This document shows positions 2,767-31,874 of a stretch of DNA of 64,000 nt, piece by piece. Location of the stretch: assembly GCA_023333565.1 (NCBI GenBank), contig JAJKFH010001865.1, positions 6,448,001 through 6,512,000 on the forward strand, read 5' to 3'. Position 1 is the first letter of the stretch; each line of letters begins with the position of its first letter. This DNA comes from Puffinus mauretanicus (taxonomy: Eukaryota > Chordata > Aves > Procellariiformes > Procellariidae). The notes under the pieces were generated by a model, which did no database searches, was not told where the DNA came from, and worked only from the letters and a program-made list of their open reading frames with translations. The position numbers and the translations under genes were made by a program.

Positions 2767-3351
2767 TGTCGTGGTTTAACCCCAGCTAGCAAATAAACCC
2801 CACGCAGCCACTCGCTCACCACCACCACCACCCCCCGCCCCACCTCGGGTGGGATGGGGGAGAGAATCGGGAGGGCACAAGTAGGAAAAACTCCCGGGTT
2901 GAGATAAGAACAGTTTAATAATTGAAATAAAACAAAGTAGAACAGTAATAATAACAATGAGAACAACAACAATAACAGAATATACAAAGCAGGCGATGCA
3001 TAATGCAACTGCTCGCCGACCGCGTGTCACGAACGGGGGGCAAGCCCCACCACACCACACACATACTGAGCACGGGGGGCAAGCCCCACCACACACATAC
3101 TGAGCATGATGTCACATGGTATAGAATACCCCATTGGCCAGCTGGGTCAGCCACCCCGCCCCAGCTTGCCCTGCACGTGGCAGGGCATGGGAGGCTGAAA
3201 AGAGAAAACAAAAATCTCGGTGCAAGCACCACCCAGCAACAACCAAAGCATCAATGGGCCATCAACGCTTCTCTGGTACCAAACCCAAAACACAGCACAT
3301 CCCCCAGCTACTGGGAAGAAAGTTAACTCTGTCCCAGCCGGAACCAGGACA
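2767..3351 (-). mobile_element. Solo LTR, copy 1 (avian ERV), 5-bp TSD GTGAG
   Basis: A 585-bp long terminal repeat with TG...CA ends, flanked by perfect 5-bp direct repeats GTGAG at 2762-2766 and 3352-3356. Sense is inferred as minus: reading that way there is a TGTCCTGGTT-type start, a CCAAT box, a CRE-like site (TGATGTCA, 3107-3114), then a polyadenylation-type ATTAAA (complement of 2914-2919), and it ends in GGTTTAACC...ACGACA. No internal retroviral sequence lies on either side, so it is a solo LTR from recombination between two LTRs. The core promoter region (about 3033-3105) is duplicated and lacks the TATA element present in copy 2. Short frames inside it are not genes. A 5-bp duplication is usual for ERVL-type integrases. 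See the copy at 31361-31874 for the primer binding site. Confidence 0.9.
3033..3105 (-). repeat. Tandem duplication in the LTR copy 1 core promoter
   Basis: Two near-identical blocks of 39 and 34 bases, each running from ACGGGGGGCAAGCCCC to CATACTGAGC, lie end to end (3033-3071 and 3072-3105). They differ by a 5-base CACAC step. In LTR sense orientation they cover the place where the TATA box and transcription start are expected. Confidence 0.75.
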
Positions 3352-3356
3352 GTGAG
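3352..3356. repeat. Target-site duplication, right (GTGAG)
   Basis: Partner of 2762-2766. It fixes the LTR boundaries and shows that the pre-integration site was filled only by this LTR. Confidence 0.85.
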
Positions 3357-19573: not shown

Positions 19574-20137
19574 TGTCGTGATTTAACCCCAGCCAGCAAC
19601 TAAACACCACGCAGCCACTCGCTCACTCCCTGCCTCTGGTGGGAGGGGGGAGAGAATCGGGAGGGCACAAGTAGGAAAGCTCACGGGTTGAGATAAAACC
19701 AGTTTAATAATTGAAATAAAACAAAGTAGAACAGTAATAATAACAATGATAACAACAACAATAACAGAATATACAAAGCAGGCAATGCACAATGCAACTG
19801 CTCAGCACCCACCAATAAACACCTCACACGTCCCGAGCACGAAAGCCCCCCCTTCCCGGACCACGCCTCCTAATTATATACTGAACATGACGTTACTTGG
19901 TATGGAATACCCCACTGGCCAGCTGGGTCAGCCACCCCAGCTATGCTTCCCCCCGCAGCTCCCCATGCACCTGGCAGAGCATGGGAAGCTGAGAAGTCCC
20001 CGGTGCAAGCAGACCCACTTGGCAAGGACCAAAGCATCAATGGGCCATCAATGTTTTTCTCATACCAAACCCAAAACACAGCACCCCCCCCAGCTACTGG
20101 GAAGAAAGTTAACTCTGTCCCAGCCAGAACCAGGACA
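19574..20137 (-). mobile_element. Solo LTR, copy 2 (avian ERV), 5-bp TSD GATTC
   Basis: A 564-bp LTR of the same family as 2767-3351, starting TGTCGTGATTTAACCCC and ending CCAGAACCAGGACA. It is flanked by perfect 5-bp repeats GATTC at 19569-19573 and 20138-20142. In its minus-strand sense it keeps a CRE-like site (TGACGTTA, complement of 19888-19895), a TATA element (complement of about 19872-19880) about 10-15 bases downstream, and ATTAAA (complement of 19703-19708). The CCAAT box is changed to CCAGT. No internal sequence is present, so it is a solo LTR. Frames at 19583-19792, 19746-20180 and 19870-20146 lie inside it and are not genes. Confidence 0.9.
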
Positions 20138-20142
20138 GATTC
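20138..20142. repeat. Target-site duplication, right (GATTC)
   Basis: Partner of 19569-19573. Confidence 0.85.
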
Positions 20143-25800: not shown

Positions 25801-26473
25801 ATGCTTTAAGACAATACTTAGGAAATATCAACATTGCTGGCATGAAAACAATCGATACTTACAATAATTTGCTAAATAAGTATATTGCTGAATTGGGACA
25901 TTTACCATATGCTAATATAAATATTTTGAGCCTTTTCTAGGCAAATGTCTAAGCAGAAGACTTTCACCCTGAAATTTAGTGAGTAATTTGAAGAAAATGT
26001 CTTACTCTATTTATTAGTCATTTTAATGGGGGAGGTGTTAGTTATCTTTTCATAATCATGACATGATTTCGTGAAGTGTGTCTTTCCCAGTTCTATTCAT
26101 CAAATAAGCTCTCCAAATAATTTTGAAAATTTATTCAGAATACCTCACTGCAAATATCAAAAGATATTTCACTATACCTGTCAGTATTACCACGTTCATG
26201 TTTTCTTATTTTCTGGCCTGATTGGAGTCTTTGGTGACATATTACATTTTTTTCTGTTCCCTTGTTCATTGACTTACAAAAATGGGATTTCTAAGTCTAA
26301 GCACTTGGGTTTCAGAATTCCTTTCTTCCAAATATTTTTGGAAATTCTAAAAGAAAATATCATTTCTGTGAATATACTTTCCAGGAAGTTAACATTCTGG
26401 AAAAGAAAACTGTCAAAAGTAAGGAGTGAAGTTTGGGTTTGTTTTATCAAATCAGTAAGATATTAATTACTTT
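22836..26473. other. Unique AT-rich sequence, no firm gene
   Basis: A 61-codon plus-strand frame at 25508-25693 has a mixed, protein-like composition but no splice or initiation context. A 131-codon frame at 26071-26466 is Phe/Ile/Ser-rich, as expected by chance in AT-rich DNA. Poly-T at 24478-24489. Confidence 0.45.
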
Positions 26474-26659
26474 TTAAAAAAATATTTGCCTATATTCTAG
26501 TGGAATTGTAGCATCCTCACTAAATGGAACTAAAACACTTTCAGGCTTGATTGTAAATGGGGTTCCATTGTGTTCACTTGCATCGTGTCTGATTTTTATT
26601 GTACAGTCCACAAAATCTGTAATCCTGTTTCCATTATTGTACAACACAGGGACAGCCAT
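26474..26659 (-). other. Weak candidate coding segment A, unidentified
   Basis: A minus-strand frame of 61 codons from an ATG, open a few codons further upstream. The peptide is mixed and hydrophilic with Asp, His and Glu (for example NNGNRITDFVDCTIKIRHDA), not typical of chance translation here. It has no clear donor before its TAA. I do not recognise it. With segment B (26927-27121) it could belong to a decayed minus-strand gene. Confidence 0.2.
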
Positions 26660-26926
26660 GTCTTTATTTCTACAAACCTACTAATTATTAAGATCCTCAT
26701 CTTGTTTCAAAGATGGATTTAAGATTAAACTATTTCATGAAAGGCTACATGGGCAAATCTATATCATAGGTATAAATCTGTGCTTTAAAAAGTGGATTTC
26801 AAATGCACTGTTGCTATGATTCTTTCTTAACATCTACTAAATAAGTTATTTTCCCAACAGTTATGCCTTCTGCCTAGGGCTATTTTATTTATGCATTATT
26901 TGGGAATTTTTATTCATAGACGTGTC

Positions 26927-27121
26927 CTAGATCACAGCAAGAGTAAATCCGGGAGGGACTGTAGGAAAATCATTGAAAACATCTCCGTATTGATTTTGCA
27001 TGTTTTTGACCACTTGATAAAGGAAGTACATAAAAGCTTTAGGAAGCAAAGAGGTGCCTACATGTAGTACAGTGATCAGAATTGTTGAAATCTCAAGAAC
27101 TAAAGCAATTCCCTGAGTCAA
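26927..27121 (-). other. Weak candidate coding segment B (possible terminal exon), unidentified
   Basis: The minus strand is open for 64 codons to a TAG at 26927-26929. The first 30 or so residues are hydrophobic (IALVLEISTILITVLHVGTS), followed by a polar, Pro-containing tail (FNDFPTVPPGF). The bases just upstream (ATACCCTTGACTCAG) form a plausible 3' splice site, and AATAAA follows the stop by about 10-15 bases, so a terminal exon is possible. I do not recognise it. Confidence 0.2.
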
Positions 27122-29397
27122 GGGTATATTTTATGAGAATAACACAATAAATTCTAGCAGTTGTCTTTAATGAGTTTCTAAATAAGCTTTAATATCCTCT
27201 TTAATACAATATAGGTTGATTTGATAGCCAAATTCATGGCATCATTTGGATTAGCAACTATCCATTTCCCCTAAATTAGGAACAGTTAGGAAATGAGTTA
27301 TTAATAGACTGTGTGGACTAGAAAAAGTATTTTTGTGAACTAATAGTAAATTGTCCCATCAAGCAGTTGTGTCCCTCCCATTGTGATTGTCCTTTCTAAA
27401 CAAAATTTGTAAATGTGCAAGTGAGCGCTGTCCTAGTTTTGTATGAGGAGCAGATGTAAACTGTGTTTGAGATAGTTTAAAATACTTCTATTTTTTCTAA
27501 ATGAAAATATTTCCTATTTCTAGCAGATTAACCTCTTGTACCATTCCTGTTAGTGGAGTCCAATGTCTGTACAAAAAAAACCTCCAGAGAAACTACTTAC
27601 TAGCCATTGAAATGCAAATGAGTGAAAGAAAAAGTGGGCTGTAAAACCTTCAAAGCAGCCAAGTGAGTTTGGTCCAGTTTTTAAAGCATATTTACGTGAC
27701 TTTAATCCACAAGTGTCAGTTTTCGGTGTGGAAAATTAAATCTAGGCTCTTTAACCAGTCATTTTAAAAAATATTCTTCCCATAGCCTTCTACTACTAAA
27801 AATATGTTGGATTTTATTGCCCGTCATGTTCCAAGTTTGAGAACAGCTCAGATTCTGAGAGCCAGGGAGGCGTCCTAGTCAGGATGGACATGCTTACCTG
27901 GTCTTTGACGATCCTTATCCCAGGCATTTTAGATAAATGTTTTCCTCTGGGATCTTCCCTGGCTGAACTGAGACTGGCTGGTTCTGAGAAGTGTCTTCAG
28001 AAAAGGAAATACATTCTAAACAATAGTGAAACAACCTCCTCCACCAAAACATTTTTGTCTTTTTCTGAAGGCAGAATTCAGTATGTCCATAAGATTTTTC
28101 AGTTTTATTTGACTGGAAGTGCTTATCATAAAGGTTATGCTGAAAGTTCCACCCCCAAATGCCATTTCACTTTTTTTTCACCTCCCTTCAGTATTCTTTC
28201 GCACCCATAATTTTGTGCTTTCCCACTGGGCCGTGTCTGGTGTCTGTTATTGATGCATTTGTTCAGAGCCCTTGAAACTGGGACAGTACAGCTGCTGTCT
28301 TCCATTGGGATTTTTTAGGTTTGTTCCCATTAACGTTTCATTGTAGTACAATGTTATCAGAAGAAAAGCAAGGATGATCTTGTTAATTAAAATGGCATTT
28401 GGGTTAACCTTAAGGTGATGACAAATGGATAAAAGCCAAGACATGTAGTGTAAAGGCTGACATGCTTTACTAGGCTTGTCATGTTGGGTTCAAGCTAGAA
28501 TATGCAAGCTAACTATGGTACTGTCTCAGTTTTTAGTTCAGAATGTCTCATTCTTATCAGAAAATCTGTGTCCTATAAATAAAAATAAGATTTTGTAGCC
28601 ACAGGGTTTCCCTGGAAAAGCTATACTTCTTTTCTGCATATTGTACATTGAAATATAAGAGCTCCCTCATCTCTGCTTTGAGGCAGCAAGTGTTTAATCT
28701 CTTAATTCTAGAGCAGAAGAAAGCAGAGTGAGCTCCTCCTCATCATCAGGATTTCCTTTTTGCTCTTCATTTTTCATTGTTTGTCATGTGTCTTAAATGT
28801 GTCATCCAGACTGAAACTAAGTGCTTAGCCCTTCATTTCATTACGATTATGCCATGCTCTCTGAGGCTTAAACTAGCTCATGCACCATTTGTAAATTTTG
28901 CAACCGATACCAAATGCCAGGCTGTGATGATACCTCAATGGCAGAACTTAAATGGTTTCTTCATAATAAGTGGGAATCCTTGGATGAGCAGCAGTCAGAA
29001 CTTTAGCTGTAGTGTAGACATAGGCTACCCTCTTTTACTTTCTTTTTATTTTTACAGATTTTAAAATAATTTTTCTGTATTGTTATAATTACGTCCTAAA
29101 GAACCATTCTAAACAAGCAATTTTCTTTTCATATGTTGTAATAAATCCTTTGAGTTACTGCTTGGTTGAAAGTAATGGAGCCCTTTAAAAAGCATGTTAA
29201 TATATATCACGATACCTTTGCTCAGTGCACAAGGGAGCTACAGAAACCTAGTGAGCTACTGCAGTGAGTAACAGTTCTAGGAAAGGGTCTGTATACTTTA
29301 TGTCTAAGACAAAATGTCTGGCTCTGCGTGAAGTTCAAAAGCATGATGGGCAAGTTAATTTCTGATAGGATACAGCTAATGCCACCAGGTCATAGTC
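27122..29397. other. Unique AT-rich sequence, no gene seen
   Basis: No pol-like, env-like or LTR-like sequence is visible next to the partial retrovirus that begins at 29398. Frames at 27884-28210, 28247-28444 and 28777-29064 have no motif. Confidence 0.5.
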
Positions 29398-30210
29398 TTA
29401 ATTCAGTGCTGCTGGATCCCTAATGTAGTTTTGCCTCCTATGATGGAACTGCTCTTGTTTTGGTTTAGGACACCAAAACAACCTTTGGTTTAGGTTTTGG
29501 TCAGGAGCTGGTCCACTGATTACAGAGCCACTAATTGGCCAATGATGCCTTTCTGGTGACGATAGAGTGTCCTGGTTGATAGGTGGAGAATAGGACATAC
29601 CCTCTTTGAGTTGCTGGACCTCCCGGGACAGCTTCTCCACAGCCAAGACAAGGGAGGAGGAGATAGTTTCTTCAAAATCCCGAAGTCTGCTAACTAAGGC
29701 ATCCATCGTTGGTGCTTCTTCCTCTGCCCAGGACAGTACTGCCAATGAACTGGCATACGATGCTGGTGCGCTCCGTACCAACTTCCACCACGTGGGTCGC
29801 GTGCACTGGACTTCATCTGGATCTTTGGGTGTTCGGACATCGTCCAGGTCACTATAAACCACCTCCAGCATGCCTAATTCTCTCAGGTACTGGATACCTC
29901 TCTCCATAGTGGTCCACTTGCCTAGGCGATATATAACATCTTCCTTGAAGGGATACCTTTCCTTCACGCCTGACAGCAGTCGCCTCCAGAGGCTGAGGAC
30001 CTGTGTCCCTTTTCCAATTGCTTTGTCAATACCTGCTTCCCTAGCAAGGGATCCCAGCTGTTTGGCTTCCTTCCCCTCTAATTCCAGGCTACTGGCCCCA
30101 TTATCCCAGCATCGGAGCAGCCAGGTAACAATATGCTCGCCTGGACGACGGCTGAAATCTTTCCGCATATCTCGCAACTCATTCAGGGATAAGGATCGGG
30201 TGGTTTCCAT
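29398..30210 (-). pseudogene. ERV gag-like precursor, capsid-like part
   Basis: 270 codons from an ATG, in the same phase as the 333-codon segment upstream. Twelve non-stop codons rich in Glu (GGEEEEE) lie between that segment's TGA and this ATG. The sequence is Trp-rich and helix-prone (VTWLLRCWDNGASSLELEG, LSLWRRLLSGVKERYPFKED, WTTMERGIQYLRELGML) with a probable coiled coil near residues 180-205. It resembles Gag-like products repeatedly seen in bird genomes and, by position, would be matrix/capsid. The C-terminus (LFWCPKPKQ) has no complete CCHC zinc knuckle. The frame ends soon after at a TAA that may belong to flanking DNA. No protease or pol follows. Confidence 0.7.
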
Positions 30211-30246
30211 CTCATTTATGAGTTCTTCCTCTTCCTCCTCCCCTCC

Positions 30247-30249
30247 TCA
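30247..30249 (-). other. Single in-frame TGA interrupting the gag-like frame
   Basis: The only stop between 31248 and 29398 in this phase. The context TCA TGA GGA fits CpG decay of an arginine CGA. A read-through stop is possible in principle, but nothing here indicates it. Confidence 0.75.
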
Positions 30250-30354
30250 TGATGGCCCTGGTTTTCCATCATCCTTTTCTAAATGACCTGACTTCCGCTT
30301 CAAAGATTTCTTCTTCTGTACAGGGGCGACGGATACCAGCGACGGTTGGTCCTC

Positions 30355-30714
30355 TGGTTCAGCTGTAGTACCCGTCGTGAGGGTTTGGGTAGCTGCAGTG
30401 CCTGTCGCGGGGGTTGGAGTAATTGTAGTGACTGTTGCCGGGGTTTGAGTGGCTGCAGTGCTTGTCGCACTGGTTGGAGTAACTGCAGTGACTGTTGGCG
30501 GAGTTTGAGTAGCTGCAGTGCCTGTTGCGGGGGTTGGAGTAACTGTAGTGACTGTTGCCGGGGTCTGAGTAGCCATAGTGGTTGTTGTGGGGGTTGAAGT
30601 AGCCACGGTGCCTGTCGCAGGGGTTTGAGTAGCCACAGTGGTTGTCGTGCGGGTTGAAGTAGCTACAGTGCCTGTCGTGGGGGTTTGAGTAGTCACCGTG
30701 TCTGTTGCTGGGGT
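30355..30714 (-). repeat. In-frame 30-bp minisatellite, 12 units (decapeptide array)
   Basis: Twelve consecutive 30-bp units coding for TPATGTAATQ-like decapeptides without a frameshift. Alternate units pair as a 60-bp higher-order repeat, notably TPATVTTVTP with TPATGTAATQ in the 3' half. Thr and Pro dominate, so the stretch would be mucin-like and O-glycosylatable if exposed. The other strand shows an open Cys/Ser-rich frame (30346-30597), which is only a shadow of the repeat. Confidence 0.9.
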
Positions 30715-31334
30715 TGATCTCTGGACAGTATTCCTGAATAGTTGTTTAACTCTAAACAAGGCCTGAACCACATTCAGGAGACATAGCAATATGATCATGC
30801 TTGTTTGAACATCCCAAGGATATTCAAAATTCTCAGGGAATATTGTGGACGTCTTCATGAAGAGGATAGAAGAAAAAGGAGTTTCTGAAGATATGGAAGG
30901 GAAGGTGAACAAGTGGGAGAAAGTGTCCCATCCTGTCTCCCCCCTAAATTCATCCTCTGAGGTGAAGACGTAAGAAGTGTAATTATTAATAGTTTCCAAA
31001 AGATAGCTCCCGAAGAACAGGAATGATGGCAGTGCTGAGTACAGGCTCGTGACCAATAATTTTATCATAACATAAAGCCAGGTCACACAGTATAGCAAAG
31101 CAATGACCTTAATCCATTTCCCAGAAATGACCAACCCCATATAAAAACTGATAATCAGCAGTATAGACAGCCAGTAAGGTGCTATATACCACAACTCCAA
31201 GAACAGATCCAAAAACTCTGAGAGCAAATAAATCAACATTGTGAACATCGAGTACTAAACTGATATAATGAATGCTTATAACAAATTTGTTTTAACCCGT
31301 TCGGGTCAGATGTGTCGTTATCTCAACCCTTCGA

Positions 31335-31360: not shown

Positions 31361-31874
31361 TGTCGTGGTTTAACCTGGCAGGCAGCCAAATACCACGCAG
31401 CCGCTCACTCACTCCTCCCACCCCCAGCAGGACGGGGAGAGAATTGGAAGGGTAAGAGTGAGAAAAACTCATGGGTTGAGATAAAGACAGTTTAATAGAA
31501 CAGGAAAAAAAGGGAAAATAATAATGATAATGATAAAATATACAAAATGAGTGATGCACAACGCAATTGCTCACCACCTGACCGATAACCAAGTAGCGAT
31601 TGGTACTTCCTGGATCACGCCTACCATTCATATACGGAGCATGACGTCACATGGTATGGAATACCCCATTAGCCAGCTGGGCTGGCTGTCCTGACTATGT
31701 TCCCTTCCATCTTGTGTACCTAGCTCAGTCAGTAGGCATGGGAGCTGTCCTTGGACTAGGAGGGCACTTAGCAACAACTGAAAACATCAGTGTGTTATCA
31801 ACATTCTCCTCATACTAAATCCAAAACACAGCACTAGGAAGAAATTTAACCCTATCCCAGCCGAAACCAGGACA
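31361..31874 (-). mobile_element. 5' LTR, copy 3 (avian ERV)
   Basis: A 514-bp LTR starting TGTCGTGGTTTAACCTGG and ending CCGAAACCAGGACA. In its minus-strand sense it has a perfect palindromic CRE (TGACGTCA, 31642-31649), then TATATGAA about 8 bases downstream, and ATTAAA (complement of 31491-31496). The CCAAT box is changed to CTAAT. It is shorter than the two solo copies and diverged from them, so it is probably another subfamily. The primer binding site directly inside it fixes it as the 5' LTR. Short frames within it are not genes. Confidence 0.88.
31642..31649. promoter_or_regulatory. CRE (TGACGTCA) in the LTR promoter
   Basis: A perfect palindromic CREB/ATF site just upstream of the TATA element in LTR copy 3. 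The same place holds TGATGTCA in copy 1 (3107-3114) and TGACGTTA in copy 2 (19888-19895), each one base away, so the site was probably in the family's ancestor. Confidence 0.55.

What the first reader, a model, noticed from the sequence alone, without database searches (positions are those of the whole stretch)
29398..31248. Gag-like ERV precursor with a membrane-spanning leader and mucin-like decapeptide array
One phase from 31248 to 29398, broken only by a TGA, encodes three hydrophobic membrane segments, twelve TPATGTAATQ-type repeats, a basic patch and then a Trp-rich capsid-like region. Conventional Gag starts with a myristoylated or basic matrix. A multi-span leader followed by an O-glycosylatable stalk suggests a membrane-anchored Gag, loosely like glyco-Gag, or a captured host membrane protein. 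This is the best candidate for an under-described system here.
Basis: partly seen in the sequence, partly recalled or inferred. Interest (0 to 1): 0.75.

Follow-up and report, generated by a model that had tools for sequence, protein, structure and literature searches.

The report
Bird retroelement Gag with membrane anchor
A broken copy of a bird endogenous retrovirus, seemingly without envelope gene, whose core (Gag) protein begins with a conserved, membrane-spanning, probably glycosylated leader, which suggests that its particles form on an internal cell membrane instead of leaving the cell.

Summary
The window carries a 5' fragment (LTR, tRNA-Lys-type primer site, broken gag) of an avian ERV-L-like provirus on the minus strand. 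Leader, Thr-rich decapeptide array, basic patch and capsid-like part are one gag frame: 34 of 60 fetched copies from the same genome read without a stop from leader to gag end, so the TGA is a lesion of this copy. In the family, protease follows the gag TAG in the same frame (4 of 4 copies); in the one full copy examined only about 440 bases separate pol from the 3' LTR, so it has no env. The leader recurs in other birds, mostly keeps an N-glycosylation site (59 of 68 relatives), and its third hydrophobic segment with the basic tail is strongly constrained (pN/pS 0.10). I read it as a signal-anchor tying Gag to the ER, like the ER routing of IAP and MuERV-L. The predicted topology puts array and capsid in the cytosol, so an O-glycosylated stalk is unlikely. 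No capsid fold could be shown (poor models). A published songbird ERVL had its gag annotated with a 'disrupted envelope domain'.

The parts
31361..31874 (-). 5' LTR, 514 bp, TGTC...GACA
   Evidence: Termini read directly; 450 bp or more of it in one piece in 53 of 60 fetched copies, 84-97% identity
31335..31352 (-). primer binding site of tRNA-Lys-1,2 type (the name is recalled)
   Evidence: Sequence; exact 18-mer in 44 of 60 copies
31237..31248 (-). two candidate gag start codons; the second (31239) has A at -3 and its ACA|ATG context recurs in 33 of 34 full copies
31129..31185 (-). hydrophobic segment 1 (leader residues 22-40)
   Evidence: Kyte-Doolittle
31051..31107 (-). hydrophobic segment 2 (residues 48-66)
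   Evidence: Kyte-Doolittle
30976..30984 (-). N-glycosylation sequon N-Y-T (residues 89-91) in the loop between segments 2 and 3
   Evidence: A sequon in this loop in 34 of 34 full own copies (NYT 31, NCT 2, NRT 1) and in 59 of 68 relatives
30715..30837 (-). ENFEYPW block, hydrophobic segment 3 (30754-30810) and basic tail VKQLFRN..QRS
   Evidence: Most constrained part of the leader; pN/pS 0.10 between two leader types
30364..30714 (-). Thr/Ala/Pro-rich array, 11 full + 1 partial decapeptide
30205..30363 (-). linker: basic patch (VAPVQKKKSLKRK) then acidic run, with the TGA lesion at 30247-30249
29581..30204 (-). conserved capsid-like region, cut off at about 29581
   Evidence: 518 relatives; homology end
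   Evidence: No match to the gag, pol and 3' pieces held

Best explanation
This is the 5' fragment of an env-less avian ERV-L-like provirus whose Gag is a membrane protein from its first residues. Shown: leader, array and capsid-like part are one gag frame at the usual gag position (LTR, primer site, gag-TAG-protease, RT and integrase), open in 34 of 60 fetched copies, and the same plan recurs in hawks, eagles, storks and ibises. Inferred: hydrophobic segments 1 and 2 target the nascent chain to the ER; the loop with the conserved sequon lies in the lumen; segment 3 returns the chain to the cytosol and its basic tail fixes that side; in many relatives a Trp-rich domain of about 85 residues (absent here) follows, then the Thr-rich array as a flexible, length-variable linker, then the capsid in the cytosol. 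Capsids would assemble on, or bud into, ER-type membranes, giving an intracellular copy-and-paste cycle without Env. The copy in the window cannot do this: a stop splits its gag and the rest of the element is missing.
For: 34 of 60 fetched copies (60 chosen from 138 scored matches) are open from leader to gag end, 644-685 aa. Two Morphnus gene-model proteins have leader, array and capsid part in one protein (P0009, P0010). A profile of 13 leaders, some carrying the Trp-rich domain, gave 271 hits; of the 119 examined, 84 have the EYPW-type block itself. Sequon in 34 of 34 full copies and 59 of 68 relatives against 30.6 expected from shuffles. Net charge of +2 or more after segment 3 in 62 of 84. 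pN/pS on 28 of the 34 full copies: leader 0.60 (bootstrap 0.45-0.82), capsid part 0.38 (0.24-0.60); segment-3 block 0.10 between leader types. No env in the copy at C2343: 443 nt between pol end and 3' LTR. No Gly2, zinc knuckle, GQR box or PTAP/PSAP, PPxY or YPxL motif in 34 of 34, as expected if the usual plasma-membrane route is not used. Precedents: loss of env plus gain of an ER signal turned the IAP progenitor into a retrotransposon (PMC4643047, passage); MuERV-L particles accumulate in the ER (PMC5930517, passage); Ty1 Gag is taken to the ER co-translationally (PMC3945221, abstract).
Against: No localisation or topology experiment. Residue shuffles of the leader give three hydrophobic windows in 201 of 1000. 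Among 66 relatives with 60 or more residues upstream of the block, 30 have no upstream window above 1.6, and segment 3 misses 1.6 in 26 of 84; own copy L054 shows two windows, not three. The N-terminal part of the leader evolves fast (pN/pS 0.72 between types, 0.80 within type A), and the loop has 0.94 between types. 32 of 34 full copies have a Met between segment 3 and the capsid part that could start a shorter Gag. No capsid fold shown; no MHR pattern in 34 of 34. Absence of env rests on one full copy; the second that I looked at (C64, L071) could not be judged, because the LTR-like stretch behind its integrase is only 69-72% like the LTR. The 60 copies were picked from the best-scoring matches, so the share of open frames is not that of the family.
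Confidence: 0.6

Rival explanations
1. The leader is made as part of Gag but cut off (signal peptidase or viral protease) and works as a separate small membrane glycoprotein, an Env-leader or viroporin-like accessory, while the capsid part is freed.
For: The leader has a lumenal-type loop with sequon, a fast-evolving N-terminal half and a separately constrained segment 3; Gag polyproteins are normally cleaved (recalled).
Against: The array and basic patch join it directly to the capsid part in the 34 open copies. No cleavage site was tested for. Targeting through the leader would still occur before cleavage.
Confidence: 0.15
2. Glyco-Gag-like orientation: the protein goes to the cell surface with array and capsid part outside, and the Thr-rich array is an O-glycosylated stalk.
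For: The array is Thr/Pro/Ala-rich (57 Thr of 117) and weakly resembles a mucin profile (E 0.0096 in P0009, far below the family cut-off).
Against: The charge bias after segment 3 (62 of 84) and the sequon before it give the opposite side. In some other lineages the array is Ala/Pro-rich with fewer Thr (P0038, P0034, P0204). A capsid outside the cell could not package RNA (inference).
Confidence: 0.12
3. The leader is a captured host membrane protein or a remnant of an envelope gene fused to gag. A songbird ERVL was annotated with a disrupted herpesvirus-like envelope domain inside gag.
For: PMC6523648 section 3.4 (read whole) reports a 137-residue match to PHA03269 (E 8e-4) in the gag frame of TguERVL2_I_Ucy and similarity in all TguERVL2 subfamilies.
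Against: No convincing Pfam or PDB relative; Marek_A does not appear at E up to 10 in 10 proteins tested. A match to a Thr-rich glycoprotein region may come from the low-complexity array (inference; their alignment was not seen).
Confidence: 0.08
4. The leader frame is a fortuitous open frame of 5' untranslated sequence, and real Gag starts downstream.
For: The N-terminal part has pN/pS of 0.72-0.80; Met codons exist in the array; 10 of 60 copies have no leader in the capsid frame.
Against: 0 of 5000 shuffles open; the frame recurs in other birds at 31-47% identity for the best fourteen hits and in one alignment of 13 leaders; segment-3 block at pN/pS 0.10; leader as a whole below 1 in bootstrap (0.45-0.82).
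Confidence: 0.03

Closest known systems
Avian ERV-L, TguERVL2 family (PMC6523648, section 3.4 read)
   Same: Avian ERVL; two long frames in the same phase; about 6.4 kb against 6.77 kb here; no intact env; recently active; an odd feature inside the gag frame
   Different: That section does not describe membrane segments or a decapeptide array; its feature is called a disrupted envelope glycoprotein C domain. I hold no TguERVL2 sequence, so identity of the families is not tested.
MuERV-L (PMC5930517, passages)
   Same: Env-deficient ERV-L; particles accumulate in the ER
   Different: Whether its Gag has a multi-segment leader was not tested here; no MuERV-L sequence was compared
IAP Gag (ER targeting gained after env loss; PMC4643047, passage)
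   Same: Env-less element with Gag directed to the ER as the working idea
   Different: A different retrovirus class (recalled); its ER signal is a short N-terminal one (recalled), not a three-segment leader with a glycosylated loop
MLV glyco-Gag (recalled)
   Same: Membrane-inserted N-terminal extension in front of Gag
   Different: There an optional extra start makes a minor form with Gag outside; here the leader begins the only gag frame seen and Gag is predicted inside
Foamy virus Env leader, which binds Gag (recalled)
   Same: Membrane leader linked to capsid budding, in the neighbouring class III lineage
   Different: Encoded by env and separate from Gag; no sequence likeness tested
XtERV-S and OVEX1 Gag (PMC8278194 passages; PMC2717909 passages and section 9)
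   Same: Class III-related Gag without myristoylation signal and without zinc knuckle; stop-separated gag and pol in one phase
   Different: Their N-terminal regions are described as polybasic (OVEX1 also coiled-coil); no membrane segments are mentioned in what I saw

Membership tests
Retroviral gag gene | First gene after LTR and primer site, followed by protease and pol | tested here: met
   LTR and PBS upstream; gag TAG then LVDTGAQ protease in the same frame in 4 of 4 copies examined, 2 of them with a further stop in that stretch; RT, RNase H and integrase in one copy's pol
Retroviral gag gene | Capsid fold | tested here: inconclusive
Retroviral gag gene | Major homology region QX3EX4(phi)X2R (pattern as in PMC8278194) | tested here: not met
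   0 of 34 full copies; that paper lists it for ERV-L and as absent from foamy viruses
ERV-L (class III) | No Gag zinc knuckle and no myristoylation signal | tested here: met
   0 of 34 with a zinc knuckle, 0 of 34 with Gly2
ERV-L (class III) | Major homology region listed for ERV-L Gag in PMC8278194 | tested here: not met
   0 of 34 by strict pattern; hence 'ERV-L-like', not a proven member
ERV-L (class III) | pol grouping with ERV-L or spumaviruses in a tree | not tested
   Only a PDB sequence comparison: best an RT/RNase H p80 chain, then Pr125Pol (recalled as MLV-type and foamy virus). One gag relative is named Fv1-like (P0071). The ERV-L label rests on these and on recall of the LTR type.
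Env-less intracellular retroelement | No env between pol and 3' LTR | tested here: met
   443 nt from pol end to 3' LTR in L070, with no sense frame of 80 aa or more inside it; one copy only; L071 could not be judged
Glyco-Gag | Alternative upstream start beside a normal Gag start | tested here: inconclusive
   First Met codon 104 nt after the PBS start in 25 of 34, PBS pattern not found in 5; no conserved Met at the capsid start (LINEMETTRS in 2 of 34), but a Met between segment 3 and the capsid part in 32 of 34
ER-targeted Gag (IAP type) | Gag inserted into or translocated at the ER | not testable with these tools
   Only hydropathy, sequon and charge pattern

The most novel reading that the evidence does not exclude
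A whole avian ERV-L-like lineage has replaced the matrix-myristate logic by a polytopic, N-glycosylated signal-anchor built into Gag, so that each capsid subunit is a membrane protein from birth. The leader acts as a minimal built-in substitute for Env in intracellular budding, and it is exchanged between subfamilies as a module.
Probability: 0.4. Interest if true: 0.75.

Novelty: new variant of a known kind. Interest (0 to 1): 0.55.

Why it matters
Retroviral Gag normally reaches membranes by a myristate or basic surface (recalled); ER targeting is known in a few intracellular elements. A conserved three-segment, glycosylated Gag leader shared by several bird groups would be an independent and more elaborate solution, would tie the success of env-less bird ERVs to where their particles form, and can be tested with leader-reporter fusions alone. 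It also offers another explanation for the 'disrupted envelope domain' reported inside gag of a songbird ERVL.

Full report
What is there. On the minus strand, positions 31874-31361 are a 514-bp LTR (TGTC...GACA), followed by a primer binding site at 31352-31335 of tRNA-Lys-1,2 type (sequence; the tRNA name is recalled; exact 18-mer in 44 of 60 copies) and, 86 bases later, by the first ATG of the gag frame. The frame runs from 31254 to a TGA at 30249-30247 (335 aa) and on to 29398 (282 aa). No match to the pol or LTR pieces follows within 26001-29580; the other two LTR-like copies of the window (2767-3352 and 19574-20138) are clearly diverged from it (67% for the latter, 70-87% in pieces for the former). 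The thing in the window is a 5' fragment.

Is the leader part of Gag? Yes. The capsid piece found 138 scored matches in the own genome out of 2333 candidates, a lower bound. I fetched 60 of the 138, mostly high-scoring and chosen for variety, so not a random sample. In 34 of 60 one frame is open from leader start to the gag end YYDQ(N/D), 644-685 aa. In 10 more the leader start is in frame with the capsid part but the frame ends elsewhere; in 6 only part of the leader is in frame; in 10 no leader is in the capsid frame. Two gene-model proteins of the eagle Morphnus have leader, Trp-rich domain, array and capsid part in one protein of 563 and 575 aa. The TGA here is therefore damage.

The element. 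In four of four copies examined, protease (LVDTGAQ) follows the gag TAG in the same frame, a readthrough-type arrangement; two of the four carry a further stop in that stretch. One copy's pol piece has reverse transcriptase, RNase H and integrase domains. In the copy at C2343 the distance from 5' LTR start to 3' LTR end is 6769 bp (computed from coordinates), 443 nt lie between pol end and 3' LTR, and the two LTRs are 97.7% identical. That copy has no room for env. A second copy (C64) could not be judged, because the LTR-like stretch behind its integrase is only 69-72% like the LTR.

The leader. Single-sequence search gave 36 hits (several of them match only array and linker). A profile of 13 leaders, some carrying the Trp-rich domain, gave 271 (some match only that domain: 84 of 119 examined have the EYPW-type block). 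The organism-named hits that carry the segment-3 block are Morphnus, Buteo, Accipiter, Mycteria and Theristicus, that is three bird orders (orders recalled); the Grus and Amazona hits checked do not show it. Many further hits come from unnamed metagenome contigs. The common plan is: hydrophobic N-terminal region, loop with an N-x-T site, ENFEYPW-type block, third hydrophobic segment, basic tail, then in many relatives a Trp-rich domain of about 85 residues whose pattern is absent from the capsid frames of all 60 fetched copies, then the array, a basic patch, an acidic run and the capsid part. A loop sequon is present in 34 of 34 full own copies and in 59 of 68 relatives with the region, against 30.6 expected from shuffling the loop (the sequences are related, so this is not a probability). 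Net charge of +2 or more after segment 3 holds in 62 of 84. Results against: upstream hydrophobic windows above 1.6 are missing in 30 of 66 relatives with at least 60 residues upstream, segment 3 misses the threshold in 26 of 84, and residue shuffles of the leader reach three windows in 201 of 1000.

Selection. On 28 of the 34 full copies, pooled pN/pS is 0.60 for the leader (bootstrap 0.45-0.82), 0.74 for the array (0.51-1.06), 0.38 for the capsid part (0.24-0.60) and 0.82 for the C-terminus (0.43-1.64). Between the two leader types (24 and 4 copies) the ENFEYPW-segment 3-basic block has 0.10, the loop 0.94 and the N-terminal part 0.72; within the first type the values are 0.21, 0.41 and 0.80. 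Synonymous divergence between the types is 0.44 in the N-terminal part against 0.08 in the capsid part. This suggests that the N-terminal part was exchanged between subfamilies (inference), while segment 3 and its basic tail are strongly kept.

Mechanism. Because no hydrophobic segment separates array and capsid, both lie on one side. A sequon before segment 3 and a basic run after it predict loop in the lumen and array plus capsid in the cytosol. So the array is more likely a flexible spacer than an O-glycosylated stalk; the array region varies from 76 to 116 residues in the 30 copies measured, and in some other lineages it is Ala/Pro-rich. With no env in the copy examined, and no Gly2 and none of three late motifs in 34 of 34 copies, assembly on ER-type membranes is the simplest reading. 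It agrees with the reported ER accumulation of MuERV-L particles (PMC5930517, passage), the env-loss-plus-ER-signal history of IAP (PMC4643047, passage) and co-translational ER routing of Ty1 Gag (PMC3945221, abstract). Targeting, topology and budding site are all inferred; nothing here shows them.

Novelty. [quoted passage not shown] I suggest that this may be the same kind of gag, with the match caused by the Thr-rich region, but I hold no TguERVL2 sequence and Pfam's Marek_A did not appear for 10 relatives tested. My ten literature searches listed no paper that I could recognise as describing a membrane-spanning leader in an avian ERV-L Gag. I rate it a new variant of a known kind. Membership in ERV-L is not proven: the MHR pattern listed for ERV-L was not met (0 of 34) and no pol tree was made. 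The capsid fold remains unproven, as both structure models were poor.

Noticed in passing
window 2767-3352 and 19574-20138 (minus strand): Two further LTR-like copies, 76% like each other and 67-87% (in pieces) like the LTR at 31361-31874; no gag protein match beside them
   Followed up: partly
window about 39-209 and 1701-1942: Protein matches through gene-model chimeras (P0034, P0119, P0027); the P0034 and P0119 parts look like LINE (CR1-type) products (recalled, not tested), in the GC-rich start of the window
   Followed up: partly
relatives P0008, P0009, P0153, P0188 and others: A conserved Trp-rich domain of about 85 residues (EWQGVW..CWGLAHAYRAL) between leader and array, matrix-like in position, with no Pfam match above cut-off; its pattern is absent from the capsid frames of the 60 own copies fetched
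   Followed up: partly
L036, L054, L060, L061: Second leader type with the N-terminal part very different but nearly the same capsid part, as if exchanged by recombination; L036 also has an insert of about 30 residues before the array
   Followed up: partly
P0188, P0201, P0050, P0228: A third, highly diverged leader type (YFEQPW/YLEHPW-like block) that keeps the same plan; P0188 and P0201 have more than one sequon
   Followed up: no
P0053 and P0150: Bird-type ERV gag proteins recorded under Klebsiella pneumoniae, probably contamination of those records
   Followed up: no
many Mycteria and Grus entries: ERV gag proteins named 'ubiquitin carboxyl-terminal hydrolase 4' or similar in public databases, probably a spreading misannotation
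   Followed up: no
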